Shown: one piece after another, positions 10,914 to 49,533 of the stretch
Numbering within the stretch: position 1 is the first letter of the stretch
Layout: each line of letters starts with the position of its first letter
Origin: Ascidia mentula
Taxonomy: Eukaryota; Chordata; Ascidiacea; Phlebobranchia; Ascidiidae
Length of the DNA: 64,000 bases
Direction of reading: 5' to 3'
Assembly (NCBI GenBank): GCA_947561715.1
Contig: OX387197.1
Span: 3,911,001-3,975,000, forward strand
Made by a program: the position numbers and the translations under genes
The notes under the pieces: generated by a model
Database searches by the model: none
Seen by the model: the letters and a program-made list of their open reading frames with translations, nothing else
What the model was told of the DNA's origin: nothing

Positions 10914-11240
10914 TTACAAATGACACGACACCCATTTCGCCAAACCGTTGTAAATTGCCACTGCGTAGCAATTTGCAATCTGTAGAGATTTCATGTGGGA
11001 AACGAAAGCGTTCATATCTTCATTATGTAGTAAATAATACCCGAGTAACTGCGATGCCTGAGTAGAAGATATGTCTTGATTATATTTTTCAATGAATACA
11101 CTCATATAACTCACCTTTGTGTATCCGCCACTCGCTAACAGACCGGCATTAACAGGACCGACTCCAGGTAAACTGAGTACGGAAGCTCCCATTATTGGTC
11201 TTTGAACAAAAGTGGTGTGAACGCGACTGTTCGTTGCCAT
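10914..11240 (-). CDS. BAF-like protein A (barrier-to-autointegration factor family), two exons
   Basis: The unspliced frame is 108 codons, but it contains a strong donor, ACAAAG|GTGAGT, at 11115/11114 and an acceptor, TTCTACTCAG, ending at 11058. Removing this 57-nt phase-0 intron leaves 42 + 47 = 89 residues, exactly the length of human BAF. Residues 19-42 (ASVLSLPGVGPVNAGLLASG and onwards) align with the BAF helix-hairpin-helix around its GIG turn. Exon 2 (ASQLLGYYLLHNEDMNAF...) aligns without gaps with the BAF C-terminal half, including the N/K-E-D-[ML] block. BAF is a small dimeric double-stranded-DNA-binding protein of chromatin and the nuclear envelope that also limits retroviral autointegration. 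The start ATG (11240) follows ATAA and leaves an N-terminus similar in length to BAF. Overall identity is low, so function is inferred from the fold, not from close orthology. Confidence 0.78.
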   Translation of the reverse strand: MATNSRVHTTFVQRPIMGASVLSLPGVGPVNAGLLASGGYTKVSYMSVFIEKYNQDISSTQASQLLGYYLLHNEDMNAFVSHMKSLQIANCYAVAIYNGLAKWVSCHL

Positions 11241-11690
11241 TTATATTCTGTTCCAAGTCAATATATATCAGTGAAATATTTGGTTGAGTTAAAGAGGCAT
11301 CATCATGCTTCTGCCTTTAAAAAGAAATAGTTAGCTTTATTTCAGGGAAAGCAGTGATAAAGAAAAAGGGAAACCGCGTCATAATATGTCGCAAAAATGT
11401 ACTAATACAAAATATAGTCAAAGTACATTTCTTAACGGTCAACAACACACGCGTTCTTGTAAAGCCCATCTAAGAGGAATTGTTTCCCAAATATAGGCCT
11501 AAACCGTTTTTTATTTCAAGTATGGCTAAATGTAATGTCTTGGCATACAAAGTAAAAATTCAGTTCAGTGAACGTCATTGTTTAAAAGTATAAGGGAAAT
11601 ATTTGTTGTAGACAAAACGTGATCGCTTGTGTTGTTATGTGAAAAATGTATCACAAAGTCATTTTCACGTTGCTAATACCAAATCCTTAT
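11241..11690. other. Upstream region of gene A, no other feature
   Basis: About 450 bp upstream of gene A's start has no ORF with recognisable content. A TATA-like atatat lies at about 11262-11270, a short distance upstream of the start codon. Whether it is a promoter cannot be decided here. Confidence 0.3.
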
Positions 11691-13265
11691 CCAGTAAAAC
11701 GACAAACGTCCTGGATGATGTGTAACAACAAGATTGGTTGAAAATTTCCAGAATTAATGATTGACCAACGAACGGCAAGATCACAAAACGTCTCCGATCA
11801 ACACCGTTATTTAATCGGGTTGGTGGAGGGCCAGAGGTTGGATTGCAACACGGCAATAAATCACAGCGTGCCTGGACAACAAACTCTCTGTACCCATAGA
11901 GTCTGTTTGAAAAACATCCGCAACAAGAAATTAACATTATTAACCTTCCAAATTACATATTCTGACCATATTGCACAGTCAAAACTTAAATTTATTTTGA
12001 AAAAAGTCATTTCTTCCTGCTATAGCTGCTGCAACCAACCTCTCAATTGCGATGACGAGTTGGTCGGTATCATAGCAATTAATTTTTTGCGCCATGTTGT
12101 CCGACAAAACTTGCAATGACCCATACACTGGGGAACAACACGTTAAAAACATATCCTGGCAACGCTTCACTGAAGGCAGTTTGTCACTTTTGTTCTGGCG
12201 CGCTTTGATTTATTGCATATAGTGTTGCAATTTAACATACGCCCTCCACAAAGTGATCGGTGCCGTTTTAATAACTCGATGTTTGTTGGTTAATCATTAA
12301 TTCTGAAACATTGGAAAACAACATGTTGCAATAAATAGTGCAACACTTCGCTTGTTTTGAAAACTTGAAAGTACCATGAGTTTCACAGCTCATTTGGACT
12401 GTCCTATTTCGTTTACGCCAAACTTCACAAGTCATTTCAAGTTTTTGAATGAATTTACATAGTGTCGTAATATCAGCATTTTCACGCGATGTGTGCTGGT
12501 TAGGTGAAGATTCCAGGACAAATGTTCGTTAAAACACAGCTTTTGGTTCTAAACGTTTTTCGTTCTTGACCCAAAAAAAGCCACTGTAATGATTGCAGTG
12601 GTATAAGAAGCAGGCGCTTCAAAATTACTACCGTGTTTTCTAATTTTACACAAAATTACGAAACTTTTATCAAAACCATTGGTGAACACTCGCGGCACTA
12701 CTGACACAGTTAAAGAAACCTTGGTCTATTGTGCGTAGTTACTGATTGAATATAAAGTTACAAAACGTTTGTTAAACTATAGCAAAAAGGGCCACAAAAC
12801 ACACGTGAGAATAAACGTAATAAACCACCAGAGAATTGCTTTTTTACATATTGCCCGCATCCAAGTCCTGTGTTTATCTTCAATTTAATTCTAAACGTTT
12901 ACATATCAGTAAATTACTTAAACTCCTTATTAAAATATGCTGACACAAATATTACGTTGTTATTGCTGCCATACGTGACAATTTTGCAACGTACTGATAT
13001 ATCCTAGTTCAATAGTAAACGAACCTTCGGTAAACATAAGTCCACGTTTAACTGTGCCAATTTTTTTGCAAATTTAGCGCAACAATCGATACATCACTCA
13101 AACCAAATGCAGATCACCAATATTGGTGTGTCACTACACTGTTCCTTATCTATTTAGTAACGAAAAGTGTTTGGTCCGCGCAAGAATTTAAAGCTAGATA
13201 CAAAATATGAGAGACAAAACCACTGCGCACAACACCTTACCGTAAGGAAAAGTTGGACCAACTGT
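11691..13265. repeat. Dispersed copy of the 3.17-kb repeat family (partial)
   Basis: From ccagtaaaacgacaaacgtc to ccgtaaggaaaagttggac, this 1.57-kb block is similar to parts of the units at 54.9-57.2 kb and 58.1-61.1 kb. Landmarks are the gattggttgaaaatttccag arm, the gcggaggttggattgcaaca segment and tggtccgcgcaagaatttaa. Only one arm of the unit's 38-bp palindrome is present here. No protein is encoded. Confidence 0.8.
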
Positions 13266-13465
13266 GGGCAACGGCGGTTGGTTTTCAACAATAACCTTCT
13301 TTAGCAACGACGTTATGATGAATGCGGATCACTTGGTTAAAAGACTCGGACAAAAGGTTCGTGGCGTCAAAGACAGGTGGTATGTTGACATAAGCCCGGC
13401 TCTACCTTTGCGGTATTTAGAATCTATTTAGACAAGTCCATACCTGAGCAGCGTTTGCAAGAGAT

Positions 13466-13735
13466 ATCTCCACCCTGCCATTGGTATTCATCGTATGTTG
13501 TTTTTATTTCGTGAGAAGAGTGACACGCGAAACTCGCAACTTTCTAGCGTTCGGAAAAATATTTCCACCCTACCATTGGTATTCATCGTATGTTGTTTTT
13601 ATTTCGTGAGAAGAGTGACACGCGAAACTTGCAACTATCTAGCGTTCGGAAAAATATTTCCACCCTACCATTGGTATTCATCGTATGTTGCTTTCATATC
13701 GTGAGAAGAGTGACACGCGAAACTCGCAACGAACA
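13466..13735. repeat. 95-bp minisatellite, about 2.8 copies
   Basis: The motif ccattggtattcatcgtatg recurs with a 95-bp period (for example at 13495, 13590 and about 13685), with a few substitutions per copy. A single related unit, with its 5' and 3' flanks, lies at 48060-48330. The tandem state is therefore a local expansion of one block of a dispersed repeat. Confidence 0.85.
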
Positions 13736-13920
13736 AATAATCCTTGTTTTAACGTTGAATAACTTTTATACCTGTATAACTTTTATACATGTATAACACT
13801 TATACATGTCTCAAATTCGAAATGTTTTAATATACATGAAATATGAAATTGGGAAATTAATGTTCATACTGACATCATTGGGACGTTTAGGTTGAAAACA
13901 TTCGTGTGTAAGAAACATGG

Positions 13921-15705: not shown

Positions 15706-15836
15706 TTTAATATAAAAATTAAGTTTGACAAGGGACACTGTACGCTCGTATTGGGACAATAATTTGATGTTTTCAGTTTCAAAGCGCCCAAATTTGTGTT
15801 GTTATGTGTGCACCCTTCAAGAGACCATCTCTCTTT
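15042..15836. repeat. ~110-bp inverted repeat arms (15042-15151 and 15729-15836)
   Basis: The right arm is the reverse complement of the left arm with moderate divergence. For example, gggtgctttgaaactgaaaa at about 15090 pairs with ttttcagtttcaaagcgccc at 15771-15790. The 578-bp interval holds the end of the dispersed repeat. This may be a foldback or MITE-like element nested in the repeat. Confidence 0.6.
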
Positions 15837-16840
15837 TCCCACGATGCATTTTGTTTGCCAAACAACAAAACAAAAGATGTAAGCCAAACCAACGGACTTT
15901 GTTCTGAAATCCAGAGATTCTCTAACTCGCAACGGCCTGGTTCCTCTTTTTAAGTTTCCAGGAGTGTATAGTGCAACAATTAAAAAAATGTTTGAAAAAA
16001 TGACGACAAATAACATGCAAAGTCAGGCTTCGTTTACCAAAAATTGCAAAAAACTTGGTTGTGTGCATAAAATATCAAGGCGTTACGTACATTTACCGAA
16101 ATAAGGTTCACTAGCATCGCAATCCTACATGGCTATGCGAAAGCAAGGTATCACTTCTGCGTTTTACCGAAGGTATTATGTTTCCTGCTTTGGTCAAATT
16201 AAATTAAATGTTCGATGTGTTACAAGGGTAATGTTTCAATGTTTTATCTTTGCAAGATTATCGACGCACCAAAATCCAAAATTTACCAACAGAAAACTTG
16301 CAATTTTTATTTCATATTATCTGGTTGTGTTGGTAACGTAAGTCAAGGCTCTCGACCAGTATACACCAAGTTCAAAACCTGTTCAGGCTTCCATTTTCTT
16401 GTAATTCTACTCATGTGATCTGTTTCGATAAGCCCAAAGCTCTCATTTACTTCTAAGTACGTTTAGTTACAAAGAATATGAACTTATACTACCGTTCATA
16501 AATATTGACACTTTACGTCCGTTCTGAGACTATAAGAGCGCATTTTGATATTTCTCTACTGAAGGCTTAGCTTGTGACATAAGAAATAAAAAAAAAACTA
16601 GTGAGAATGTTTCTGAGCCTCGATTTCAAACGCATGTCACAAGTGGTGCCAACAACAAATTAATCCTTAAAAGTTCATTGATATCATCGCCACACATATC
16701 GGGATTTATGCTCGGAATAACTGGATTCTAATCTCAGCGGGTTGAAAAAACATTTCCGAAGTTCTATATGCGGGTTTCGAGCCCAGGATGTCCTTATAGT
16801 TAAAATCCCTGTAAATGAAAAGAATATGTACGCATTTTTA
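15837..16840. other. No supported gene
   Basis: Two overlapping plus-strand open frames (16129-16418) have no recognisable motif. A short piece (gctatgcgaaagcaaggtat) resembles sequence near 53365, so part of this stretch is repeat-derived. Confidence 0.35.
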
Positions 16841-16843
16841 CGA

Positions 16844-16917
16844 GCTTTCGCGGGTACCTCTCATTTCATCAAATGAAAAGGGTCACACCTCATAAAACTA
16901 GAGGTACTCGCGAAAGC
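16844..16917. repeat. 18-bp hairpin, gctttcgcgggtacctct arms
   Basis: 16844-16861 pairs with 16900-16917 with one mismatch. The 38-bp loop contains a second small palindrome (tttcatcaaatgaaa). The hairpin is GC-rich in an AT-rich setting and lies about 190 bp beyond the 3' end of gene D (minus strand). It could be a foldback element or a structured RNA. Confidence 0.6.
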
Positions 16918-17106: not shown

Positions 17107-19334
17107 TTAATCACTTGTCGACTTTTTATGTGTCGATGTTTTGCCACCATTTACACTGAAATAAATCTCGAAACCCCAAAAGGTTTCATCGGCCCAATGA
17201 GGGTTGACCTTCAAAACATGATATGTTTCCATGAATTCCTTTACAACATCTTCGCGATATCCTCCATGTTTTATGTATATGTCGAAAAGATCTTCAATCT
17301 GACGCAAAAATATCGGGCATCAATAAACTTCATCACATCAACTTTGAGCTAATGTTTACTGGGTATTTTTAACAAATTATCAGGTACAACAGAACAAGGC
17401 CAACTAAGTCTCCTTTCATATTTAGCACGATTTTAGTACATGGTTCTATAAATGAATGTTTTTAAATAGTAAAAATTTTTCCTGACTTTCTTATTGATGG
17501 GAACCTGTGCCAGATTAACCTTAAGGATTATGCCTTGCGACAGCCAAAAACGCTGCCACTTACAAGTTCTGAATTAAAGAGGCTGAACGTTCAACAGGGT
17601 TTTTTTAACCGCATTCTTGGTAAGCGCTATGTTCAGGCGGTTTGTCATAAATTGCCTCGGGTCCAACAGAGTATAAAAAAGATAATTTTCAAAAACTTTT
17701 AAAGGGTTCGGGTTTTTTTACACATTTTTACATTTTTTTAAAAGTAGAGTATTTTTTGAGATTCATCATTTGTCAACATGGTCAATATCTCCCATAACAG
17801 AAAGAACATCGCATAAAACTTTCAATACCGTTTTCCCGGCCTCTGTTAGATGTGCATCACGTATACCGGGGAAATCCTTCTTTTTCATATCCTTAATATC
17901 TTTGTAGAGATATTCATCCCTCTTAATTCCCTGCGAAAAATTAATCGAATCGTTTTATCGCAAGCATGTAAATTACCAATACTTACTAAGTAGCCGACGC
18001 GTTGATATAAGGGATCCAAGTCCTGCAAAAATTCTTTGCTTTATTGCTGTTTCGATTTTCATGGAAATATTAAGCTTGTTTTATTTTGTTTATATACTTG
18101 TGTGTGTGCCCCGAAAAAAAAACTTACTTCGTATGTTTTAATTGAGTCATCTTTTGGTTCATCCTTGATCGCCTGTTAAAATATTTTTTAATGACTGACT
18201 TAATGAATTATAAAAAACACGTTTATATTTTCTTATACTTTCGGGCCAATAAGATATTTGACGGCTTTACTTAAATACTCTACACAAATTTGATCTGGAA
18301 TGCGCACTTCTTACGTGATCTTTACAGTAGTTGTTAGGAAAAGGCGGGCTTTTCTTACGATAAGTAAACTTCGTAATATGGCGGAAATATCTGCGAATGA
18401 CTGCAAAAACGTGTGAAAATTCAAAACACTTTTTGTGGACCAGCGAAATTTAAACTAAAGTAAAATAAACAGAATATGCTAACTTTTTGACCCAACAATA
18501 TGAGCTTTGTGCCTTATTTTATGTTAAAAGATAAAATCCTTGCACTCTCCCGTCTAGTGTTTGCCCGAACCCAATTGTACGTGTTTTGCGAAAGTGGGGT
18601 TAATGGACAAAAATAAATGAACTGTATACCATGACGACCTCTCCAATGATTTTCAGCCTCCGCCTAGAATAATCTTATGGCGCTTTACCGCAAACAAGCC
18701 TTTAGCACAAGCCTAAATCCTCACACAATCATCGTTTGGGGTCTCTTACGTAATCATTAATTTTTTTACATAGTTCAATAGACTATGTATAGATATAACT
18801 GTATTTTGTTCAGCGATGAATGGTAAGTGAGTTTTAGTTATTAAGGAAATGCATTTACCAAATATTGCAACGAAAAGCCCTTATTGTAATAAAACATTTT
18901 ATTGCAAAGCAAATGTTCTTCAATGTTATGATTCAATGTTATGATAGAAATGTCAATATGTGCAAATGTTATTTACTTTTTTCTTTATTGCTGAGTTTGG
19001 AGGAAATATTTAATAAAAAACTTAATTTGCTTGGTGTCTTTGAGCTTGGTCGACTGTTAAATTTTTTTTTTTTACTGCATAACGAATTTTTAAAAACATT
19101 ATATAGTTTTATACAATTTCGTTTCAGTAACATATACATTGCTAACTTATTGATATCGATGGTATGCTTCTTACCATTTTATTAAGATCGTCTGAGAGGG
19201 AATTATCCGCATCCTGCAAAATCAAAGTTTAAAATGTTGTTGACAAACTAAGTTGTTTAATTACTTACAGTCTTGTGAGATGAAGTTGAACTATTAGGGT
19301 CTTTTGGCTGTAGTTTTGGTTTTTGAGATGACAT
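17107..19334 (-). CDS. BAF-like protein D with spliced N-terminal extension, six exons
   Basis: Six exons, all joined in phase 0: 19334-19269, 19213-19175, 18172-18128, 18022-17987, 17930-17829 and 17298-17107. Donors are GTAAGT/GTAAGA except the fifth (ACG|GTATTG), and all acceptors end CAG. The total is 159 residues. Exon 1 begins MSSQKPKLQP, exons 2-4 are 13, 15 and 12 residues of polar, acidic sequence, and exon 5 ends in the HhH-like KKDFPGIRDAHLTEAGKT. Exon 6 (63 residues) carries EDVVKEFMETYHVLKVNPHW, which aligns with the BAF C-terminal helices and with gene C exon 3, also 63 residues. The turn reads PGIR rather than GIG, and the helix after it is shorter than in BAF. An alternative is read-through of exon 5 to a stop about 20 codons on. 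The tail has a basic stretch (STHKKSTSD). Confidence 0.7.
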
Positions 19335-20500: not shown

Positions 20501-20539
20501 ATAGACTGTCAAATACACAAGATCATTACAAAAAACTCC

Positions 20540-24976: not shown

Positions 24977-25902
24977 TTATATTTCCAATTTAACTTTGGA
25001 TGAACAATTATCTCCACCATCTTGATTTTGTTGGCGATGTTCAGTAAAAGCCTGATAGGTTTGTTCAGCCCAGTAAGCATTCTTTTTTGAATTTTGGCAA
25101 TTCTTCTTCCAAAAGTTTACAAATTCCTCTCGATTCATGTCAACCACCTTATTATACATTTCTTGCACCTTAAACAGTAAAAAAAAGAAAACCGTTTCAA
25201 AATGCCGAGGATTAAATTGTATAGCCTTTCGAACTCAGTAAGTTGATTTATTTTTCTCCTGAAGCCTGTGCAAGCAGCCAAATTTTATCAAAAAAATCAT
25301 CAACATTTTTATTCGTCTATGACGTCATAATAATGTTTAGAAAACAAGACAACTTGTTCCTGCTGTGCAGTAGACAGTATATAAACAAAGTGAGCCAATA
25401 ATAAGATTTTAGTGAGCTGTATACAGGTGGCCATCACTACTTCGACCTATGAGGTCTCAACAGTGCAGCTTGGTGTGATTCTTCTGGACGACTCTGCCGA
25501 CCAAACAGTTTGCATAGTCACCACTAAGTGGAAGCCTGGCCGTTTGGTCGGCAAAGTCGTCCACAAGAGTAGGCATTAAAAATTAGGCCGTAAACAAATA
25601 AATTTTGTCTGAAACACCGTACCGTAAAACCACTGTCGGCCATAAATGTTGAGTATGCCTTATCCATGCCCGGTACATCAGTCCATTCCATATCCGCAAG
25701 AGGTTTCTTGAGAAACTTATCTTTTTTAAGATTCTGCAAATATGTACTTGGTTAATATTTTGCCTTACTGTACATTACAGCAATATATTTCAGAAAAAAC
25801 GTCACTTGTCGTTCATTTTGTTTCGCCTGGAATTAGTCTCATCAAATAGAACTGGACCTTACACACCAGCAATGAAGAAAAGCTCTTTGTAAGATCATCC
25901 AT
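24977..25902 (-). CDS. BAF-like protein C, three exons
   Basis: Exons are 25902-25867 (MDDLTKSFSSLL, donor GTGTGT), 25733-25623 (acceptor TTTGCAG, donor ACG|GTACGG) and 25168-24977 (acceptor TTTAAG). Both introns are phase 0. The product is 12 + 37 + 63 = 112 residues. Exon 2 carries KKDKF, like the QKHRDF start of BAF, and then the HhH-like WTDVPGMDKAYSTFMADSG. Exon 3 carries REEFVNFWKKNCQNSKKNAY and WAEQTYQAF, matching the BAF C-terminal helices (DLFREWLKD...). The second turn glycine of BAF's GIG is Asp here, so DNA binding may be altered. A hydrophilic tail of about 20 residues extends past the usual end. The 5' half is duplicated at 23.4-24.3 kb. Confidence 0.75.
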
Positions 25903-30982: not shown

Positions 30983-31967
30983 TCACAACAGTATTAAGGC
31001 AGGTAAATCTTTTAAGGCATTGTATGTAGATACTGCTTTCAAGGGCAAAATACGACATGTGACTAAAAGGAAGTTACAAAATGCCACAAGATCACACTTG
31101 CATACAAGAGAAAACACCACATGTAGATCCTTTGCCTGAAATAAAATATTCTATGGTTAATAATGTCACAATTTGGACGCCAGTTATCGTTTAATGTTCT
31201 AAATTCCTTTACTATTCTTTAATCAATCGGGTAAACTACAAAACGTTTGTTATTACTCCAATTGTCATATACATATCTACGACATCATACAAATGTGGGG
31301 TTACCTCTGGAACGCGGTTTAAAATTGACCATTGAACACCAATATAACATGAGTTGCCATACCGTTCTTATTTCAAAGATTTGTCTTTGTTTATATGAAC
31401 GGTTCGTCCTTATTTTGACATCGCAATTAGAAAAAAGTCATCATGTTGAAACACCAAGATAAATATTTTTTTGAGTTGTCCTTTTTTTCAGTTTTACGTG
31501 AAATTAACATCAAAATTAAAAAAAAAACTGCTATTTTACTAAGAAAATACCAAAAATAATGAACAATACCGTTGTAATGTTGAATTGTCTCAGTTTTGCT
31601 GCAGACGCTGTTCCGATTCCAGGAACGATTGAAACCGAATCTCCTGGATTTATTGCATATAGCGTTGGAAATTCGATCTCCTTTTTGGTCTGAACGTTGA
31701 TTGTAAAAGTTCAGTGAACAATTTAAACTTGCTACATAGAAGCCTTATCACCTGGTTCTGGGGATTTTCTGGTGGATCTTCGGGAAAAGAAATATTTAAA
31801 CTACCCAAAGTATGAGTAAGTTGATCAATCGGAGTCTGAAAAAATACATGCGAATTAAGACGTTGGGTACAACTTAAAGTAAGGTTTTACAAACGATGAT
31901 TGCTATTATACAAATATATATTATACCACTTGCTTACAGGTTGTAATGGTAAACTTCCATCAGTCAT
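30983..31967 (-). CDS. BAF-like protein E, four exons
   Basis: Exons are 31967-31938 (MTDGSLPLQP, donor GTAAGC), 31835-31752 (donor GTGATA), 31689-31570 (donor ACG|GTATTG) and 31135-30983. All acceptors end CAG and all introns are phase 0. The product is 10 + 28 + 40 + 50 = 128 residues. Exon 3 contains SIVPGIGTASAAKLRQFNIT, the best HhH match in the window after gene B, with the full P-G-I-G turn. Exon 4 (AKDLHVVFSLVCKCDLVAFC...) aligns with the BAF C-terminal half, including the start-of-exon Ala and the hydrophobic V-[VL]-x-x-[FL]-[SL]-[LV] run. Exon 3 and gene B exon 2 are both 40 codons. Exon 2 is an acidic, proline-rich linker with no counterpart in BAF. The last exon lies about 30 bp from the orphan exon donor on the other strand. 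Confidence 0.77.
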
Positions 31968-33506: not shown

Positions 33507-33510
33507 TTAA

Positions 33511-36500: not shown

Positions 36501-39500
36501 GTTGAAAAACCATCAAAATGTTCAAGGGGATGTAGCTCAAAATTGAATCACAGAAGGATACCTTAATTTGTGATTTTATGTTAGGCCCGTCTCTTGGCTA
36601 CGCATGAAAATTAGTTGCAAGATAGTTGCTTAAAGCACCCCCTAGGGGTCATTTCGGCCCCGATCAGTCATTATTTTAGCTAAATGGGCTGCAAAAAAAT
36701 GTAAGATGGTTTTGCGAAAAAATGAATCACAAAAACCTCATCCAATTTGCAATTTAATGTTGGCCCTAACCCTTTTCTACGCAATGGCAAAAAAAATTGT
36801 CACAGGAAAGTTCTTTGGTTGCCCCCTGGAACTGTTTTTGCTATCCTATAGGACAAAAGATCCTCCTGGAGGCTCCTCAGATCCTTGCTGTGTTTTGGCA
36901 GATGCAGCTGCAATCATTTTTTTATCTCTATGAATAGTACCAGTAGATCTTCATGGGTCACTGACCACAGGAAATGTTGTTGGCAAAAAAAGCAAATCAC
37001 TCTGCATGAACAGTCCACAACACATTTCGGGTTGATTTTACCACAGAGCTTTGATGATTTTTCTTCATTTATCATGGCATTTTTGCATTAGCTGTCTTTT
37101 TCCCAATATCAATTTGGCTTAATAATAATGCTTGCAATTGCTCAAATCAAATGTTACTACACTTTACGTTGTCATAATTAATTAACAAAATTACTTATTT
37201 AACTCTGAGCTATATTTATTACCCCAGAGAGAAGTGGTCCATCACCATATGAATGGTGCTTCATACGAACAGATTCACTGCTCACACCATTGAAACCGAA
37301 GCAATTTTCAACATATTCTGGGTATATGCTACTATTTTACCAATAAAGTAGCTCCTAGTTTGGTTTATCAATTGATTTTAAGCAAATAATTGCATTGCAT
37401 GGTCTTGTATGCAAGTTAATAACACAATTCTCATGTAATTTTCATGGTGTTGAGATGTTTATAATTTCTTACCACAATGCATGCCCCCTAATTGGCCTTT
37501 GGATGTTGATTAATTAACACCTGTGTCATGTAATTAAGTATTGGACATGCAGATAATTGTTGCATGACTGCCTTGTGATATTTGGTTCCATTCTATGTGA
37601 CCGGTTTGGGGCCTGAAGCATCATCCTCTGCCAATCAGTTGTCTTGGCGGTAACTCTGTTGACAAGGCCATTTTCTGTTGTTTAGGTGGTGTTAGTAAAA
37701 CAGCTACAACTCTGGATCCGATGATCAAACAGGTGTGAAACTTCACAATGTAATAGTTGAATGGCTCATGTATTGGACTTCAGAGAACAATTGCGATTCT
37801 GGGCAGGTGCGCCACTATTTAAGGGAAATTAGCCATTCTGTAAACTGCGCAATGTGTGTCAAATTTATGCTTAAATTTGTAAGTTTATGTATTTCGAAGA
37901 ACATGGAGAGGTTTTGAAGCATCTCCAGTCACTTATTGCCACCTAGTGACAAAAAAACATTTTTTTAATGCTTTATGTGCATGAATATGTGTGGCCAGTT
38001 CTTCAATCACAGGCATTCAAATGGCCCAAAAAATTGGTTTAAGCGCATGAATTCTCTGTCTGAACAGTCCACAACACATTTCGGGTTGATTTTACCACAG
38101 AGCTTTGATGATTTTTCTGCATTTATCATGGCATTTTTGCATTAGCTGTCTTTTTCCCAATATCAATTTGGCTTAATAATAATGCTTGCAATTGCTCAAA
38201 TCAAATGTTACTACACTTTACGTTGTCATAATTAATTAACAAAATCACTCATGTAACTCTGAGCTATATTGATTACCCCAGAGAGAAGTGGTCCATCACC
38301 ATATGAATGGTGCTTCATACGAACAGATTCACTGCTCACACCATTGAAACCGAAGCAATTTTCAACATATTCTGGGTATGTGCTACTATTTTACCAATAT
38401 AGTAGCTCTTAGTTTGGTTTATCAATTGATTTTAAGCAAATAATTGCATTGCATGGTCTTGTATGCAAGTTAATAACACAATTCTCATGTAATTTTCATG
38501 GTGTTGAGATGTTCGTAATTTCCTACCACAATGCATGCCCCCTAATTGGCCTTTGGATGTTGATTAATTAACACCTGTGTCATGTAATTAAGTATTGGAC
38601 ATGCAGATAATTGTTGCATGACTGCCTCGTGATATTTGGTTCCATTCTATGTGACCGGTTTGGGGCCTGAAGCATCATCCTCTGCCTATCAGTTGTCTTG
38701 GCGGTAACTCTGTTGACAAGGCCATTTTCTGTTGTTTAGGTGGTGTTAGTAAAACAGCAACAACTCTGGATCCGATGATCAAACAGGTGTGAAACTTCAC
38801 AATGTAATAGTTGAATGGCTTGAAAGGTTTTGAAGCATCTCCAGTCACTTATTGCCACCTAGCAACAAAAAACATTTTTTCAATGCTTTATGTGCATGAA
38901 TATGTGTGGCAAGTTCTTCAATCACAGGTATTTAAATGAGAACAATTGCGATTTTGGGCGGGTGCGCCACTATTTAAGACCGCATATCAGTAATTCTATT
39001 AAAATAGTTTTGCCCGCGGGGAATGCCCGTCTTGTACTCCTGCGTCATAGAGAGTCTCAGTTTCGTCACAAGGCAACCGGTGATGCATTGGGGTCAATTT
39101 TCTGGTTGAATGAGGAAGCAGTCACATGGTGTAGCCAGGGCGATTTTCAGCGTGTTTGGTGCAGGTTTAGTGCATTTTTTGCTCTTCTCAGTCAGTCAGA
39201 CGTTCGGTGCAGGGTGCTGTGGAAAGTTTAGTTGAAAAACCATCAAAATGTTCAAGGGGATGTAGCTCAAAATTGAATCACAGAAGGATACCTTAATTTG
39301 TGATTTTATGTTAGGCCCGCCTCTTGGCTACGCATTAAGGTGAAAATTAGTTGCAAGATAGTTGCTTAAAGCACCCCCTAGGGGTCATTTCGGCCCCCGA
39401 TCAGTCATTATTTTAGCTAAATGGGCTGCAAAAAAATGTAAGATGGTTTTGCGAAAAAATGAATCACAAAAACCTCATCCAATTTGCAATTTAATGTTGG

Positions 39501-42500
39501 CCCTAACCCTTTTCTACGCAATGGCAAAAAAAATTGTCACAGGAAAGTTGCTTTGGTTGCCCCCTGGGACTGTTTTTGCTATCCTATAGGACAAAAGATC
39601 CTCCTGGAGGCTTCTCAGATCCTTGCTGTGTTTTGGTGGATGCAGCTGCAATCATTTTTTTATCTCTATGAATAGTACCAGTAGATCTTCATGGGTCACT
39701 GACCACAGGAAATGTTGTTGGCAAAAAAGCAAATCACTCTGCATGAACAGTCCACAACACATTTCGGGTTGATTTTACCACAGAGCTTTGATGATTTTTC
39801 TTCATTTATCATGGCATTTTTGCATTAGCTGTCTTTTTCCCAATATCAATTTGGCTTAATAATAATGCTTGCAATTGCTCAAATCAAATGTTACTACACT
39901 TTACGTTGTCATAATTAATTAACTAAATTACTTATTTAACTCTGAGCTATATTTATTACCCCAGAGAGAAGTGGTCCATCACCATATGAATGGTGCTTCA
40001 TACGAACAGATTCACTGCTCACACCATTGAAACCGAAGCAATTTTCAACATATTCTGGGTATGTGCTACTATTTTACCAATATAGTAGCTCCTAGTTTGG
40101 TTTATCAATTGATTTTAAGCAAATAATTGCATTGCATGGTCTTGTATGCAAGTTAATAACACAATTCTCATGTAATTTTCATGGTGTTGAGATGTTTATA
40201 ATTTCCTACCACAATGCATGCCCCCTAATTGGCCTTTGGATGTTGATTAATTAACACCTGTGTCATGTAATTAAGTATTGGACATGCAGATAATTGTTGC
40301 ATGACTGCCTTGTGATATTTGGTTCCATTCTATGTGACCGGTTTGGGGCCTGAAGCATCATCCTCTGCCTATCAGTTGTCTTGGCGGTAACTCTGTTGAC
40401 AAGGCCATTTTCTGTTGTTTAGGTGGTGTTAGTAAAACAGCTACAACTCTGGATCCGATGATCAAACAGGTGTGAAACTTCACAATGTAATAGTTGTATG
40501 GCTCATGTATTGGACTTCAGAGAACAATTGCGATTCTGGGCAGGTGCGCCACTATTTAAGGGAAATTAGCCATTCTGTAAACTGCGCAATGTGTGTCAAA
40601 TTTATGCTTAAATTTGTAAGTTTATGTATTTCGAAGAACATGGAGAGGTTTTGAAGCATCTCCAGTCACTTATTGCCACCTAGTGACAAAAAAACATTTT
40701 TTTAATGCTTTATGTGCATGAATATGTGTGGCCAGTTCTTCAATCACAGGCATTCAAATGGCCCAAAAAATTGGTTTGAGCGCATGAATTCTCTGCCTGA
40801 ACAGTCCACAACACATTTCAGGTTGATTTTACCACAGAGCTTTGATGATTTTTCTGCATTTATCATGGCATTTTTGCATTAGCTGTCTTTTTCCCAATAT
40901 CAATTTGGCTTAATAATAATGCTTGCAATTGCTCAAATCAAATGTTACTACACTTTACGTTGTCATAATTAATTAACAAAATCACTCATGTAACTCTGAG
41001 CTATATTTATTACCCCAGAGAGAAGTGGTCCATCACCATATGAATGGTGCTTCATACGAACAGATTCACTGCTCACACCATTGAAACCGAAGCAATTTTC
41101 AACATATTCTGGGTATGTGCTACTATTTTACCAATATAGTAGCTCCTAGTTTGGTTTATCAATTGATTTTAAGCAAATAATTGCATTGCATGGTCTTGTA
41201 TGCAAGTTAATAACACAATTCTCATGTAATTTTCATGGTGTTGAGATGTTCGTAATTTCCTACCACAATGCATGCCCCCTAATTGGCCTTTGGATGTTGA
41301 TTAATTAACACCTGTGTCATGTAATTAAGTATTGGACATGCAGATAATTGTTGCATGACTGCCTCGTGATATTTGGTTCCATTCTATGTGACCGGTTTGG
41401 GGCCTGAAGCATCATCCTCTGCCTATCAGTTGTCTTGGCGGTAACTCTGTTGACAAGGCCATTTTCTGTTGTTTAGGTGGTGTTAGTAAAACAGCAACAA
41501 CTCTGGATCCGATGATCAAACAGGTGTGAAACTTCACAATGTAATAGTTGAATGGCTTGAAAGGTTTTGAAGCATCTCCAGTCACTTATTGCCACCTAGC
41601 AACAAAAAACATTTTTTCAATGCTTTATGTGCATGAATATGTGTGGCCAGTTCTTCAATCACAGGCATTTAAATGAGAACAATTGCGATTTTGGGCGGTT
41701 GCGCCACTATTTAAGTCCGCATATCAGTAATTCTATTAAAATAGTTTTGCCCGCGGGGAATGCCCGTCTTGTACTCCTGCGTCATAGAGAGTCTCAGTTT
41801 CGTCACAAGGCAACCGGTGATGCATTGGGGTCAATTTTATGGGTGAATGAGCAAGCAGTCACATGGTGTAGCCAGGGCGATTTTCAGCGTGTTTGGTGCA
41901 GGTTTAGTGCATTTTTTGCTCTTCTCAGTCAGTCAGACGTTCGGTGCAGGGTGCTGTGGAAAGTTTAGTTGAAAAACCATCAAAATGTTCAAGGGGATGT
42001 AGCTCAAAATTGAATCACAGAAGGATACCTTAATTTGTGATTTTGTGTTAGGCCCGCCTCTTGGCTACGCAGTAAGGTGAAAATTAGTTGCAAGATAGTT
42101 GCTTAAAGCACCCCCTAGGGGTCATTTCGGCCCCGATCAGTCATTATTTTAGCTAAATGGGCTGCAAAAAAATGTAAGATGGTTTTGCGAAAAAATGAAT
42201 CACAAAAACCTCATCCAATTTGCAATTTAATGTTGGCCCTAACCCTTTTCTACGCAATGGCAAAAAAAATTGTCACAGGAAAGTTCTTTGGTTGCCCCCT
42301 GGGACTGTTTTTGCTATCCTATAGGACAAAAGATCCTCCTGGAGGCTTCTCAGATCCTTGCTGTGTTTTGGCAGATGCAGCTGCAATCATTTTTTTATCT
42401 CTATGAATAGTACCAGTAGATCTTCATGAGTCACTGACCACAGGAAATGTTGTTGGCAAAAAACCAAATCACTCTGCATTAACAGTCCACAACACATTTC

Positions 42501-45500
42501 GGGTTGATTTTACCACAGAGCTTTGATGATTTTTCTTCATTTATCATGGCATTTTTGCATTAGCTGTCTTTTTCCCAATATCAATTTGGCTTAATAATAA
42601 TGCTTGCAATTGCTCAAATCAAATGTTACTACACTTTACGTTGTCATAATTAATTAACTAAATTACTTATTTAACTCTGAGCTATATTTATTACCCCAGA
42701 GAGAAGTGGTCCATCACCATATGAATGGTGCTTCATACGAACAGATTCACTGCTCACACCATTGAAACCGAAGCAATTTTCAACATATTCTGGGTATGTG
42801 CTACTATTTTACCAATATAGTAGCTCCTAGTTTGGTTTATCAATTGATTTTAAGCAAATAATTGCATTGCATGGTCTTGTATGCAAGTTAATAACACAAT
42901 TCTCATGTAATTTTCATGGTGTTGAGATGTTTATAATTTCCTACCACAATGCATGCCCCCTAATTGGCCTTTGGATGTTGATTAATTAACACCTGTGTCA
43001 TGTAATTAAGTATTGGACATGCAGATAATTGTTGCATGACTGCCTTGTGATATTTGGTTCCATTCTATGTGACCGGTTTGGGGCCTGAAGCATCATCCTC
43101 TGCCTATCAGTTGTCTTGGCGGTAACTCTGTTGACAAGGCCATTTTCTGTTGTTTAGGTGGTGTTAGTAAAACAGCTACAACTCTGGATCCGATGATCAA
43201 ACAGGTGTGAAACTTCACAATGTAATAGTTGTATGGCTCATGTATTGGACTTCAGAGAACAATTGCGATTCTGGGCAGGTGCGCCACTATTTAAGGGAAA
43301 TTAGCCATTCTGTAAACTGCGCAATGTGTGTCAAATTTATGCTTAAATTTGTAAGTTTATGTATTTCGAAGAACATGGAGAGGTTTTGAAGCATCTCCAG
43401 TCACTTATTGCCACCTAGTGACAAAAAAACATTTTTTTAATGCTTTATGTGCATGAATATGTGTGGCCAGTTCTTCAATCACAGGCATTCAAATGGCCCA
43501 AAAAATTGGTTTAAGCGCATGAATTCTCTGCCTGAACAGTCCACAACACATTTCAGGTTGATTTTACCACAGAGCTTTGATGATTTTTCTGCATTTATCA
43601 TGGCATTTTTGCATTAGCTGTCTTTTTCCCAATATCAATTTGGCTTAATAATAATGCTTGCAATTGCTCAAATCAAATGTTACTACACTTTACGTTGTCA
43701 TAATTAATTAACAAAATCACTCATGTAACTCTGAGCTATATTTATTACCCCAGAGAGAAGTGGTCCATCACCATATGAATGGTGCTTCATACGAACAGAT
43801 TCACTGCTCACACCATTGAAACCGAAGCAATTTTCAACATATTCTGGGTATGTGCTACTATTTTACCAATATAGTAGCTCTTAGTTTGGTTTATCAATTG
43901 ATTTTAAGCAAATAATTGCACTGCATGGTCTTGTATGCAAGTTAATAACACAATTCTCATGTAATTTTCATGGTGTTGAGATGTTCGTAATTTCCTACCA
44001 CAATGCATGCCCCCTAATTGGCCTTTGGATGTTGATTAATTAACACCTGTGTCATGTAATTAAGTATTGGACATGCAGATAATTGTTGCATGACTGCCTC
44101 GTGATATTTGGTTCCATTCTATGTGACCGGTTTGGGGCCTGAAGCATCATCCTCTGCCTATCAGTTGTCTTGGCGGTAACTCTGTTGACAAGGCCATTTT
44201 CTGTTGTTTAGGTGGTGTTAGTAAAACAGCAACAACTCTGGATCCGATGATCAAACAGGTGTGAAACTTCACAATGTAATAGTTGAATGGCTTGAAAGGT
44301 TTTGAAGCATCTCCAGTCACTTATTGCCACCTAGCAACAAAAAACATTTTTTCAATGCTTTATGTGCATGAATATGTGTGGCCAGTTCTTCAATCACAGG
44401 CATTTAAATGAGAACAATTGCGATTTTGGGCGGTTGCGCCACTATTTAAGTCCGCATATCAGTAATTCTATTAAAATAGTTTTGCCCGCGGGGAATGCCC
44501 GTCTTGTACTCCTGCGTCATAGAGAGTCTCAGTTTCGTCACAAGGCAACCGGTGATGCATTGGGGTCAATTTTATGGGTGAATGAGCAAGCAGTCACATG
44601 GTGTAGCCAGGGCGATTTTCAGCGTGTTTGGTGCAGGTTTAGTGCATTTTTTGCTCTTCTCAGTCAGTCAGACGTTCGGTGCAGGGTGCTGTGGAAAGTT
44701 TAGTTGAAAAACCATCAAAATGTTCAAGGGGATGTAGCTCAAAATTGAATCACAGAAGGATACCTTAATTTGTGATTTTGTGTTAGGCCCGCCTCTTGGC
44801 TACGCAGTAAGGTGAAAATTAGTTGCAAGATAGTTGCTTAAAGCACCCCCTAGGGGTCATTTCGGCCCCGATCAGTCATTATTTTAGCTAAATGGGCTGC
44901 AAAAAAATGTAAGATGGTTTTGCGAAAAAATGAATCACAAAAACCTCATCCAATTTGCAATTTAATGTTGGCCCTAACCCTTTTCTACGCAATGGCAAAA
45001 AAAATTGTCACAGGAAAGTTCCTTGGTTGCCCCCTGGGACTGTTTTTGCTATCCTATAGGACAAAAGATCCTCCTGGAGGCTCCTCAGATCCTTGCTGTG
45101 TTTTGGCAGATGCAGCTGCAATCATTTTTTTATCTCTATGAATAGTACCAGTAGATCTTCATGAGTCACTGACCACAGGAAATGTTGTTGGCAAAAAAGC
45201 AAATCACTCTGCATGAACAGTCCACAACACATTTCGGGTTGATTTTACCACAGAGCTTTGATGATTTTTCTTCATTTATCATGGCATTTTTGCATTAGCT
45301 GTCTTTTTCCCAATATCAATTTGGCTTAATAATAATGCTTGCAATTGCTCAAATCAAATGTTACTACACTTTACGTTGTCATAATTAATTAACTAAATTA
45401 CTTATTTAACTCTGAGCTATATTTATTACCCCAGAGAGAAGTGGTCCATCACCATATGAATGGTGCTTCATACGAACAGATTCACTGCTCACACCATTGA

Positions 45501-47942
45501 AACCGAAGCAATTTTCAACATATTCTGGGTATGTGCTACTATTTTACCAATATAGTAGCTCCTAGTTTGGTTTATCAATTGATTTTAAGCAAATAATTGC
45601 ATTGCATGGTCTTGTATGCAAGTTAATAACACAATTCTCATGTAATTTTCATGGTGTTGAGATGTTTATAATTTCCTACCACAATGCATGCCCCCTAATT
45701 GGCCTTTGGATGTTGATTAATTAACACCTGTGTCATGTAATTAAGTATTGGACATGCAGATAATTGTTGCATGACTGCCTTGTGATATTTGGTTCCATTC
45801 TATGTGACCGGTTTGGGGCCTGAAGCATCATCCTCTGCCTATCAGTTGTCTTGGCGGTAACTCTGTTGACAAGGCCATTTTCTGTTGTTTAGGTGGTGTT
45901 AGTAAAACAGCTACAACTCTGGATCCGATGATCAAACAGGTGTGAAACTTCACAATGTAATAGTTGTATGGCTCATGTATTGGACTTCAGAGAACAATTG
46001 CGATTCTGGGCAGGTGCGCCACTATTTAAGGGAAATTAGCCATTCTGTAAACTGCGCAATGTGTGTCAAATTTATGCTTAAATTTGTAAGTTTATGTATT
46101 TCGAAGAACATGGAGAGGTTTTGAAGCATCTCCAGTCACTTATTGCCACCTAGTGACAAAAAAACATTTTTTTAATGCTTTATGTGCATGAATATGTGTG
46201 GCCAGTTCTTCAATCACAGGCATTCAAATGGCCCAAAAAATTGGTTTAAGCGCATGAATTCTCTGCCTGAACAGTCCACAACACATTTCAGGTTGATTTT
46301 ACCACAGAGCTTTGATGATTTTTCTGCATTTATCATGGCATTTTTGCATTAGCTGTCTTTTTCCCAATATCAATTTGGCTTAATAATAATGCTTGCAATT
46401 GCTCAAATCAAATGTTACTACACTTTACGTTGTCATAATTAATTAACAAAATCACTCATGTAACTCTGAGCTATATTTATTACCCCAGAGAGAAGTGGTC
46501 CATCACCATATGAATGGTGCTTCATACGAACAGATTCACTGCTCACACCATTGAAACCGAAGCAATTTTCAACATATTCTGGGTATGTGCTACTATTTTA
46601 CCAATATAGTAGCTCTTAGTTTGGTTTATCAATTGATTTTAAGCAAATAATTGCATTGCATGGTCTTGTATGCAAGTTAATAACACAATTCTCATGTAAT
46701 TTTCATGGTGTTGAGATGTTCGTAATTTCCTACCACAATGCATGCCCCCTAATTGGCCTTTGGATGTTGATTAATTAACACCTGTGTCATGTAATTAAGT
46801 ATTGGACATGCAGATAATTGTTGCATGACTGCCTCGTGATATTTGGTTCCATTCTATGTGACCGGTTTGGGGCCTGAAGCATCATCCTCTGCCTATCAGT
46901 TGTCTTGGCGGTAACTCTGTTGACAAGGCCATTTTCTGTTGTTTAGGTGGTGTTAGTAAAACAGCAACAACTCTGGATCCGATGATCAAACAGGTGTGAA
47001 ACTTCACAATGTAATAGTTGAATGGCTTGAAAGGTTTTGAAGCATCTCCAGTCACTTATTGCCACCTAGCAACAAAAAACATTTTTTCAATGCTTTATGT
47101 GCATGAATATGTGTGGCCAGTTCTTCAATCACAGGCATTTAAATGAGAACAATTGCGATTTTGGGCGGTTGCGCCACTATTTAAGTCCGCATATCAGTAA
47201 TTCTATTAAAATAGTTTTGCCCGCGGGGAATGCCCGTCTTGTACTCCTGCGTCATAGAGAGTCTCAGTTTCGTCACAAGGCAACCGGTGATGCATTGGGG
47301 TCAATTTTATGGGTGAATGAGCAAGCAGTCACGTGGTGTAGCCAGGGCGATTTTCAGCGTGTTTGGTGCAGGTTTAGTGCATTTTTTGCTCTTCTCAGTC
47401 AGTCAGACGTTCGGTGCAGGGTGCTGTGGAAAGTTTAGTTGAAAAACCATCAAAATGTTCAAGGGGATGTAGCTCAAAATTGAATCACAGAAGGATACCT
47501 TAATTTGTGATTTTGTGTTAGGCCCGCCTCTTGGCTACGCAGTAAGGTGAAAATTAGTTGCAAGATAGTTGCTTAAAGCACCCCCTAGGGGTCATTTCGG
47601 CCCCGATCAGTCATTATTTTAGCTAAATGGGCTGCAAAAAAATGTAAGATGGTTTTGCGAAAAAATGAATCACAAAAACCTCATCCAATTTGCAATTTAA
47701 TGTTGGCCCTAACCCTTTTCTACGCAATGGCAAAAAAAATTGTCACAGGAAAGTTCTTTGGTTGCCCCCTGGGACTGTTTTTGCTATCCTATAGGACAAA
47801 AGATCCTCCTGGAGGCTCCTCAGATCCTTGCTGTGTTTTGGCAGATGCAGCTGCAATCATTTTTTTATCTCTATGAATAGTACCAGTAGATCTTCATGAG
47901 TCACTGACCACAGGAAATGTTGTTGGCAAAAAAGCAAATCAC
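33511..47942. repeat. 2.735-kb tandem repeat, five full units and a partial sixth
   Basis: Each unit has three parts: X (~755 bp, the body of the TTAA element), Ya (~1055 bp, from about 34277) and Yb (~915 bp, from about 35332). Ya and Yb share their first ~750 bp, including tgaacagtccacaacacatt and ggatgttgattaattaacac. The sixth unit has X only. Copies are nearly identical. The plus-strand frames that recur in each unit (about 113, 75 and 60 codons) persist because of this identity and resemble no protein. The three right-hand units share private variants (gggcggttgcgcc and tcaattttatgggtg). Confidence 0.93.
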
Positions 47943-48011
47943 CCAGTATGGGTATTAATGGTGATAGCCTTCAAAACTAGATTTCGGGGATTTAATAACT
48001 GATATGCGGCC
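33511..48011. mobile_element. 14.5-kb TTAA-flanked transposon expanded by internal tandem repeats
   Basis: The left end GACTGCATATCAGTAATT and the right end (reverse complement GGCCGCATATCAGTTATT) match at 15 of 18 bases. TTAA flanks both sides (33507-33510 and 48012-48015). The ends and the inside match the 686-bp element at 2077-2762. Between them lie units starting at 33511, 36248, 38978, 41715, 44450 and 47185 (spacing 2730-2737 bp). Each unit restarts with TTAA plus the left terminal repeat, but the right end occurs only once (47943-48011). No transposase is visible. TTAA duplication is typical of Kolobok and piggyBac elements, but the superfamily is undecided. Confidence 0.82.
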
Positions 48012-48015
48012 TTAA

Positions 48016-48340
48016 GCGGATCAGTAGGTTAAAAAGACACTCGTACAAAAAGGAAAGAGACCTAAAAGCCAGGAGGTTTGTTGCCATATGTCTGGCGCTA
48101 CCTTTTCGAATATTCAAAACAAGTCCAAACCTGAGCAGTGTTCGGAAAAATATTTCCACCCTACCATTAATAGTCATCGTAAGTCATTTACATTACGTAA
48201 GAATAGTGTCACTCGAAACTCGAATCTTTTTCCAACGAACAAATAATCCTTGTTTTAATGTTAAATAACTCTTATACCTGTATAACACTTATTCATGTCT
48301 CAAATTCGAAATCTTCTGATATATGTAAAAATTAGGAACC
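48016..48340. repeat. Single-copy relative of the 13.4-13.8 kb block
   Basis: The landmarks gacaagtcca..cctgagcag, ggaaaaatatttccacccta, caaataatccttgttttaa and cttatacctgtataacactt occur in order in both places. The 95-bp segment is present once here and tandem there. Confidence 0.75.
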
Positions 48341-48373
48341 ATAACTACAGTGTGCAGGGCCAGTTCGTTAATA

Positions 48374-48559
48374 TTAGTTTACATGACCTTTCCGGACCTT
48401 CAACATCATACAGTTTTGAAAATAAAAGTTAGTCAAAAATATGCTTTCCGAGATTCCACGTGTTGTCATTATATTTTCTCTCACAATCTTGTCTATGTAA
48501 ACCCTAAAATGAACACCAATTCTTGGGATTTCAAGTGTATTTTTTTCCATTGTATACAT
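48374..48559 (-). other. Possible decayed HhH exon downstream of gene B
   Basis: The minus-strand frame (MEKNTLEIPRIGVHF...) contains IPRIG, which recalls a P-G-I-G turn. Its DNA shares about 30 bp with the 9.24-9.27 kb frame (agttagtcaaaaatatg). No proper donor follows. It starts 11 bp after gene B's stop codon. Confidence 0.2.
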
Positions 48560-48569
48560 GTGAGGTTAT

Positions 48570-49533
48570 TCACAAATCATCAAAAGCATGAAATGCCTTC
48601 CGTGCATGTGCAAGAAAGGCTTCTGTCGATTTGACTAGAATCCCACAAAAGTAATCTTCGTTGTCCTGGCATACTTTACGTAGTTGGTGTAGGTGATATG
48701 CCTGTGACAAATTGAATTTGGGTTAACAATGCAGCAAATATTTCCTAATAATTTCGTCATATTTCATTTCATTTTTTTTCGCAAAATAAACATGATTTGG
48801 ATTTGGATTACCGTAGAAATTCCAAAATAATTTTATCTCTCTTCTGTAAGTTTTCTACACCAGGAACTTCCCCAAGTTATTTGTTCGTAACTCTTGTTAT
48901 ATAAGTCAACGTTTCGTTTGTTTGGTGAGAGCGGCGGTTGGTTATCAACAAAATCAGGGTTTGGCAACGATGCTATGTTGAATGCAGTTGTGTATGCACT
49001 CGTACAGTATGGATGGCTTCGTTCTCATAATTTTTTATATTTACGCAGATTTGACAGTTTTAGTTTTTCACAACGGTTCAACATCTGTTGTATGTTGGTG
49101 TTATCATATTTTAATACCGTGAAGATCCCATATTGGTTTAAATACTTTGATGTATGTTTTCCGATGCCAGGAACTTCTTCAACAGAAATGTTTGGATCAT
49201 TCTGGTATTTTCCAGGAAATGCCCTCATTTTTTGATTCTGAAAACAGACCAAAAAACTTAATACACAATAAATAGAATACTTTATTCAGCGGTTTAGAGT
49301 TATTTAGTTTCAGTGTGCCTGATGCATTCGACTATTCAGAAAAATATTATCGCAAAAAAAATATTGTTTGAAAAAAAGTAACATAAATATATCTGGCGTA
49401 AATATTTTGATAGAAAGATATTTATACTGTGTAGATGTTAATAGAAAAAACAGTTGAGTTGCAAAAAACTTTTATCAATGCAAAAAATACGCACCTCGTT
49501 TGGTTCCGGTGCAGCTGCTTGTGGTTGTTCCAT
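48570..49533 (-). CDS. BAF-like protein B, three exons
   Basis: Exons are 49533-49495 (MEQPQAAAPEPNE, donor GTGCGT), 49237-49118 (acceptor TTTTCAG, donor ACG|GTATTA) and 48701-48570 (acceptor GTCACAG), all phase 0. The product is 13 + 40 + 43 = 96 residues, close to the 89 of BAF. Exon 2 starts NQKMRAF, resembling the SQKHRDF of BAF, and continues to EVPGIGKHTSKYLNQYG. The 17 residues from the first G of GIG to the exon end match BAF in length. Exon 3 (AYHLHQLRKVCQDNEDYF...) matches the BAF C-terminal exon from its first AY through the D/N-E-D block. Intron 2 (416 nt) holds a dispersed repeat and a second, frameshifted HhH exon (48870-48812). Exon 3 might therefore originally belong to that copy. 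Without splicing, exon 2 runs on to a stop at 49025. Confidence 0.78.
48812..48870 (-). pseudogene. Frameshifted duplicate HhH exon inside gene B intron 2
   Basis: Minus strand: GAAGTTCCTGG starts EVPGVENLQKR, then the frame is lost. The last bases (AATTATTTTGGAATTTCTACG, donor GTAATC) match gene B exon 2's end in a different frame. The segment is 59 nt against 60 nt in gene B, a 1-nt deletion. Confidence 0.55.

What the first reader, a model, noticed from the sequence alone, without database searches (positions are those of the whole stretch)
10914..49533. Cluster of five divergent BAF-like genes on one strand
Five hand-spliced minus-strand genes (A, D, C, E, B) each join an HhH exon (LPGVG, FPGIR, VPGMD, VPGIG and VPGIG turns) to an exon matching the C-terminal half of barrier-to-autointegration factor. 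A and B are 89 and 96 residues against 89 in human BAF. From general knowledge, most animals have one or two BAF genes, so a spread of five plus relics in 40 kb would be an unusual expansion. BAF cross-bridges DNA and limits autointegration and foreign DNA, so a role in genome defence or specialised chromatin is a reasonable inference, but not shown.
Basis: partly seen in the sequence, partly recalled or inferred. Interest (0 to 1): 0.88.

Follow-up and report, generated by a model that had tools for sequence, protein, structure and literature searches.

The report
Cluster of diverged sea-squirt BAF genes
A sea squirt carries a row of at least eleven much-changed copies of BAF, a small DNA-bridging protein, and some of the newest copies are changing fast, which hints at a specialised job that has not been tested here.

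Summary
The genome matches Ascidia mentula kaAscMent1.1. The five hand-spliced genes exist at the stated places, with GT-AG phase-0 introns at, or within one codon of, the place where this animal's ordinary BAF gene is interrupted. Pfam SAM_BAF: A 57.3, B 27.4 and C 25.9 bits pass the cut-off (25); E 22.9 falls short; D has no match and is linked only through relatives F and C. With profiles built without window genes, A, E and C exceed all of 60 shuffled windows, B all but one; D is not found. Six more such genes on the same strand lie outside the window: 11 in 114 kb. Chromosome 2 holds ordinary BAF, one close relative and a partly decayed family (11 first-exon loci, 4 with both exons open). 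Most old pairs tested show purifying selection; the two youngest (B/B', C/C') change amino acids about as often as silent sites. DNA-contact residues are patchily lost. Best reading: repeated DNA-level duplication of BAF genes, then change of function. Genome defence is possible, not shown; a BAF-modulating or germline role is open too. Expression, fold, binding: untested.

The parts
11115..11240 (-). gene A, exon 1 (start codon, HhH, LPGVG)
   Evidence: Pfam SAM_BAF 57.3 bits for the joined protein; the genome search, without my splicing, gives 42.9 bits for both exons in the frame
10914..11057 (-). gene A, exon 2 with stop
   Evidence: intron 57 nt, GTGAGT...CTCAG
18128..18172 (-). gene D, candidate upstream exon (15 codons), begins like an exon of B'
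   Evidence: likeness to the B' exon at C1:3865920-3865885 seen by eye; tentative
17987..18022 (-). gene D, candidate 36-nt micro-exon
   Evidence: F (C1, outside the window) has an AG..GT stretch of 36 nt in the same place; tentative
17829..17930 (-). gene D, HhH exon (FPGIR)
17107..17298 (-). gene D, C-terminal exon with stop
   Evidence: F's exon 54% identical, E 1.4e-10
25867..25902 (-). gene C, candidate first coding exon (12 codons from an ATG)
   Evidence: no AG acceptor directly before it; tentative
25623..25733 (-). gene C, HhH exon (VPGMD)
   Evidence: SAM_BAF 25.9 bits joined
24977..25168 (-). gene C, C-terminal exon with stop
   Evidence: second copy C' at C1:3871239-3871436
31752..31835 (-). 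gene E, candidate upstream exon (28 codons)
   Evidence: tentative
31570..31689 (-). gene E, HhH exon (VPGIG)
   Evidence: SAM_BAF 22.9 bits joined, below the cut-off of 25
30983..31135 (-). gene E, C-terminal exon with stop
49495..49533 (-). gene B, first exon (13 codons from ATG)
49118..49237 (-). gene B, HhH exon (VPGIG)
   Evidence: SAM_BAF 27.4 bits joined
48570..48701 (-). gene B, C-terminal exon with stop
   Evidence: second copy B' at C1:3865594-3865261

Best explanation
The cluster is a lineage-specific family of BAF-domain (SAM_BAF, helix-hairpin-helix) genes on chromosome 1 of an ascidian, made by repeated DNA-level duplication of intron-containing BAF genes. Shown: 11 two-exon genes on one strand in 114 kb (5 in the window), shared intron, amino-acid constraint between most old pairs tested, and near-equal silent and amino-acid change in the two youngest pairs. 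Inferred: the proteins fold like BAF and dimerise. The groups have different surfaces: A, G, I and H are BAF-sized; A, G and I keep the glycine at position 47 but lack most DNA-contact residues; C/C'/D/F keep N70 and mostly K6 and carry a short insert in the second exon (C, C' and D also a longer tail); E/B/B' are a third group. My bet for the mechanism is that the BAF-sized ones pair with BAF or one another and tune its DNA bridging or partner binding in a specialised setting such as the germline, with DNA capture (including mobile DNA) more likely for the C/D/F and E/B groups.
For: SAM_BAF matches; BAF chains are the top 7 PDB hits of the family profile, E 1.3e-24 to 4.7e-22, other HhH proteins follow from 9.2e-4 (the profile includes this animal's own BAF); hold-out scan against 60 shuffles; GT-AG phase-0 intron in 11 of 11 chromosome-1 genes and in ordinary BAF; pS above pN in old pairs: D/F 0.70 vs 0.32, C/F 0.83 vs 0.40, A/G 0.75 vs 0.45, A/I 0.91 vs 0.46, G/I 0.78 vs 0.47, E/B' 0.72 vs 0.51, E/B 0.68 vs 0.49, D/C 0.64 vs 0.48; duplication C/C' 97% over 1046 bp; residue table; LEM domains, the partner family, give 3 hits at E <= 0.001, so no parallel expansion was seen.
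Against: No transcript was seen. D and F have no SAM_BAF match; E and C' are below the cut-off. The chromosome-1 genes do not form one clade: a chromosome-2 member groups with C/C'/D/F (96/97) and 0 of 200 bootstrap trees make the cluster one group, so it may have more than one founder; the proteins are short and H and B are long branches. H against ordinary BAF shows no significant constraint (pS 0.59, pN 0.54, p 0.33); B/B' and C/C' fit relaxed selection as well as diversification. In neutral simulations (substitutions only) 9.7% of B sequences stay free of stops at the B/B' distance and 50.5% of C at the C/C' distance, so open frames alone are weak proof for those pairs. The N-terminal exons of C, D, E, F and I are unresolved; I has no ATG in its first known exon. 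The only structure model had mean pLDDT 48.9 and says nothing. The functional part rests on residue loss and precedent only.
Confidence: 0.72

Rival explanations
1. Genome defence: the paralogs are DNA-coating factors that diversified against mobile or viral DNA, each binding foreign extrachromosomal DNA or pre-integration complexes.
For: Ordinary BAF lowers transposon autointegration and is described as acting against poxvirus (PMC3952818, abstract lines and passages); the two youngest pairs have pN about equal to pS; the locus is rich in repeats and holds a reverse-transcriptase fragment below the Pfam cut-off.
Against: In that paper BAF protects the transposon rather than the host. DNA-contact residues are eroded in A, G, H and I. 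No neighbouring defence gene was seen, but only 10 of the 35 window frames of 100 or more codons were scanned.
Confidence: 0.2
2. Germline or sex function: the cluster makes BAF-L-like or Banf2w-like proteins acting in gamete chromatin or sex determination.
For: Both vertebrate paralog papers that I read in part are of this type: mouse BAF-L in spermiogenesis (PMC8877947, passages) and an extra banf2 copy in cichlid females (PMC8268354, abstract and passages). Fast change in recent copies is common in reproductive genes (recalled).
Against: No expression or sex-linkage data here; [quoted passage not shown]
Confidence: 0.3
3. Mostly non-functional debris: a decaying array of duplicated BAF copies with one or two live genes.
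For: The chromosome-2 family is visibly decaying: of 11 first-exon loci, 4 have both exons open with GT-AG; C/C' and B/B' show no constraint.
Against: 11 of 11 chromosome-1 genes keep both exons open and splice sites, although the old pairs tested are only 27-45% identical; at distances of 0.41 (D) and 0.52 (A) 2.9% and 2.5% of neutral simulations stay open even without indels; pS well above pN in most old pairs.
Confidence: 0.12
4. The copies belong to a mobile element or a virus that carries a BAF domain.
For: Many copies in blocks with nearby repeats.
Against: Shared blocks around the chromosome-2 copies range from about 0.4 to 5 kb and their ends differ between most pairs, judged by eye; one scan of viral contigs, with two patterns from BAF-like rows that would miss diverged relatives, confirmed none of 6 pattern matches; ten of the longer window frames gave only a sub-threshold reverse transcriptase. 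Terminal repeats and target-site duplications were not searched.
Confidence: 0.04

Closest known systems
BAF (BANF1, barrier-to-autointegration factor)
   Same: Pfam SAM_BAF, HhH turn, 89 residues for A; same intron position as this animal's own BAF gene
   Different: 14-33% identical to this animal's ordinary BAF in the 10 aligned (human BAF: 64%), DNA-contact residues patchily lost, small N-terminal exons in B and B' and perhaps in C, D, E, F, many copies
BAF-L (BANF2) of mammals
   Same: a diverged paralog beside an ordinary BAF
   Different: one gene in mammals (recalled); here 11 in a row; expression and partners unknown; no sequence comparison made
banf2/banf2w of cichlid fish (PMC8268354)
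   Same: recent copy-number change of a BAF paralog, with amino-acid changes in the new copy
   Different: two to five copies per diploid there, the female copy with three substitutions and one residue fewer (abstract); here mostly deep divergence

Membership tests
BAF / SAM_BAF (PF02961) | profile match above curated cut-off of 25 bits | tested here: inconclusive
   Chromosome-1 joined proteins: met by A, G, I, H, B, B', C (7 of 11); not met by E 22.9 and C' 22.5; no match for D and F
BAF / SAM_BAF (PF02961) | HhH turn with glycine at position 25 | tested here: met
   9 of 10 chromosome-1 proteins aligned (H has lysine); B' is not in that table but has VPGIG
BAF gene structure | phase-0 intron after the codon for position 41 | tested here: met
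   GT-AG phase 0 in 11 of 11 chromosome-1 genes; position within one codon of that in ordinary BAF in the 10 aligned, B' by eye; the joins were chosen by hand, and the human gene was not checked
BAF as DNA-bridging protein | DNA-contact residues K6, H7, N70, R75 | tested here: not met
   none of 10 keeps all four; K6 5 of 10, H7 2 of 10, N70 4 of 10, R75 1 of 10; this animal's ordinary BAF itself lacks R75
BAF | dimer, LEM-domain and lamin binding | not testable with these tools
   only a proxy: G47 kept in A, G, I (3 of 10); its role in dimerisation is recalled
BAF | BAF fold | tested here: inconclusive
   single-sequence model of A's open frame (intron included) had mean pLDDT 48.9
BAF-L / BANF2 | orthology to vertebrate BANF2 | not tested
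   no BANF2 sequence was compared

The most novel reading that the evidence does not exclude
This ascidian has turned BAF, normally a near-invariant nuclear-envelope protein, into a rapidly diversifying multigene system (at least 17 genes with both exons open in this genome) that takes part in a genetic conflict, against mobile or viral DNA or between the sexes or gametes, by forming different BAF-fold dimers.
Probability: 0.2. Interest if true: 0.85.

Novelty: new variant of a known kind. Interest (0 to 1): 0.6.

Why it matters
BAF is usually thought of as a single, strongly conserved gene (recalled). A chordate with a row of deeply diverged, partly fast-evolving BAF genes beside an ordinary copy would allow direct tests of which BAF functions (DNA bridging, LEM and lamin binding, dimerising, curbing foreign DNA) can be split off. 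I found no report of it: full-text searches for barrier-to-autointegration with tunicate (0 papers), with gene family expansion (0), with Ciona (2), with gene duplication and paralogs (6), for BANF1 with paralog and lineage-specific (2) and for BAF-L and BANF2 (6) listed none with such a family by title and start of abstract; other subscription papers and preprints are not in that library.

Tried and rejected
A direct search with human BAF in the window found nothing convincing (best E 3.1): the copies are too diverged. Protein database searches with A and with alignment A1 (107 candidates, none at E <= 0.01) found no homologue; A1 contains ordinary BAF and still found none, so that database seems to lack animal BAF and the result says nothing about other ascidians. 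The anchored splice scan recovered only A; I then used a looser pair scan. A viral origin was checked once: nothing. Comparing upstream regions of the paralogs by short peptides gave noise, and its output was cut. AF2 on A's open frame was uninformative; no fold search was run. A MAFFT alignment of exon pieces misplaced the second exons and was not used. In the chromosome-2 comparison the intron length shown for L035 joins exons of its two copies and is not used. A paper search for named BAF mutants gave 0 papers; a search for the assembly length gave one unrelated paper; PMC11811190 held none of the residue names asked for. Other ascidian genomes could not be searched, so whether the expansion is shared is unknown.
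Full report
Where it is. The genome searched as G000 has contigs of 27,920,005 (C1, holding the window at 3911001-3975000), 19,883,144 (C2) and 19,461 bases (C79). These agree with chromosomes 1 (27.92 Mb) and 2 (19.88 Mb) and the 19.46-kb mitochondrion of Ascidia mentula kaAscMent1.1 (PMC11109543, passages read). Of six mitochondrial codes tried on COX1, the ascidian one gives glycine where I expect it (recalled). Total length here is 195.8 Mb in 79 contigs against 197.0 Mb in 95 scaffolds in the paper, so the two are not the same set of sequences.

What is there. Five minus-strand genes A, D, C, E, B have an HhH exon and a C-terminal exon joined by a GT-AG phase-0 intron of 57, 530, 454, 434 and 416 nt. 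This animal's ordinary BAF gene (C2:6716618-6716121) has a phase-0 intron of 234 nt at the same codon. Pfam SAM_BAF scores are A 57.3, B 27.4, C 25.9 (cut-off 25), E 22.9 (E 1.2e-4), D none.

Chance. With two exon profiles built from ordinary BAF, human BAF and outside relatives, none from the window, the four best same-strand pairs in the window are A, E, C and B; the fifth, on the plus strand, has 8.8 bits. In 60 dinucleotide shuffles the best pair reached 18.7 once and 13.7 next; B scores 18.4, so one shuffle exceeds it; C (20.2), E (30.3) and A (68.1) exceed all. A reversed copy of the 164-kb region gave at most 5.7 bits for exon 1 and 7.3 for exon 2. D fails this test. It is joined to the family by F, whose second exon finds D's at E 1.4e-10, 54% identity, and by a clade C, C', D, F (100/99), of which C passes Pfam. 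Genes B and C each have a second copy in the genome with both exons open.

Extent. Same strand, same contig, outside the window: B' (C1:3866203-3865261, modelled with five exons, SAM_BAF 34.1 bits), C' (3871991-3871239, 22.5 bits), I and H (3902399-3902066, 46.5 bits; 3902831-3902482, 45.5 bits), F (3905302-3903145, no SAM_BAF match), G (3979506-3979148, 56.1 bits). With the window's five this is 11 genes between 3,865,261 and 3,979,506. The stretch examined by exon profile was C1:3861001-4035000.

Elsewhere. C2:19.326 Mb has a close BAF relative (86.0 bits). C2:16.11-16.86 Mb has 11 loci with a matching first exon, plus shorter fragments. Two pairs among them (16.794/16.854 and 16.815/16.817 Mb) encode identical proteins. 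Of the 11, 4 have both exons open with GT-AG; one has an altered donor, three have stops, one has no second exon found, and for two only the first exon was seen. So at least 17 BAF-type genes have both exons open: 11 + ordinary BAF + the 19.326-Mb gene + 4. Search counts are lower bounds by the tool's own statement. The SAM_BAF profile rang in 0 of 14 control genomes at E <= 0.001 and in 2 of 14, none over the cut-off, at E <= 10. LEM domains gave 3 hits.

Evolution. Pairs aligned end to end, pS/pN: D/F 0.70/0.32, C/F 0.83/0.40, A/G 0.75/0.45, A/I 0.91/0.46, G/I 0.78/0.47 (p 2e-5 or less each), E/B' 0.72/0.51 (p 0.003), E/B 0.68/0.49 (0.01), D/C 0.64/0.48 (0.026); H with ordinary BAF 0.59/0.54 (0.33). 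Young pairs: B/B' 0.28/0.25, C/C' 0.03/0.04 (12 changes). These 11 pairs were chosen by me and share members; other pairs were not tested end to end. In the chromosome-2 family three distinct proteins give dS 0.09-0.14 and dN 0.05-0.06. Neutral simulation (substitutions only) keeps frames open in 9.7% (B at 0.26), 50.5% (C at 0.04), 2.9% (D at 0.41) and 2.5% (A at 0.52) of 2000 runs each. The tree of 14 short proteins supports C/C'/D/F (100/99), these with one chromosome-2 protein (96/97), E/B (90/95) and human with ascidian BAF (84/96); five inner branches are open, H and B are long branches, and the cluster as a whole is not one clade.

Residues. PMC8606531 (passages) names K6, H7, N70 and R75 in DNA binding. 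Among 10 chromosome-1 paralogs aligned half by half (B' left out): K6 in C, C', D, E, B; H7 in A, G; N70 in C, C', D, F; R75 in B. Ordinary BAF here has K6, H7, N70 and asparagine at 75. Position 47 is glycine in A, G, I. Identity to ordinary BAF in that alignment is 14-33% (G 33, A 31, H 26, I 25, B 25, C and C' 22, E 21, D 15, F 14). The C/D/F and E/B groups are hard to align, so single columns there are unsure.

Mechanism. Shown: gene structure, family, duplication, constraint in most old pairs. Inferred: BAF fold and dimers; A/G/I/H as modulators of BAF, C/D/F and E/B groups as altered DNA binders. Precedents, each seen in passages, are BAF-L in mouse spermiogenesis (PMC8877947), banf2w in cichlids (PMC8268354), and BANF1 in transposon autointegration (PMC3952818). 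I put a BAF-modulating or germline role ahead of genome defence, without proof.

Novelty. The BAF domain is old and known. A diverged BAF gene cluster of this size with added N-terminal exons is not described in the listings I saw; hence a new variant of a known kind.

Noticed in passing
window 33507-47950: Tandem array of a unit of about 2735 bp, about 99% identical between copies, with an inner 767-bp block repeated at 1054 bp and a 122-aa open frame on the plus strand in four copies (132 aa in the first); the 132-aa frame has no Pfam match. It lies between genes E and B.
   Followed up: partly
window 51875-52561, + strand: Fragment resembling a reverse transcriptase (RVT_1, E 8.4e-6, below cut-off).
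   Followed up: no
window 53804-57336, 57347-60094, 63141 onward: Repeat family of 2.7-3.5 kb, 96-98% identical between copies, reaching past the window end.
   Followed up: no
C2:16.11-16.86 Mb (loci L029-L036): A second, partly decayed BAF-like family in a segmentally duplicated region on both strands.
   Followed up: partly
C1:3863624-3863719 (L043) and C1:3983103-3983234 (L023), - strand: Weak matches to the BAF-like second exon just outside the known genes (E 0.003; E 0.049, and 1.0); possibly relics or chance.
   Followed up: no
C1:3865920-3865885 (L042) and window 18172-18128: Small upstream exons of B' and D begin alike (AG, then a KDE-containing peptide), hinting at a shared charged N-terminal extension.
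   Followed up: partly
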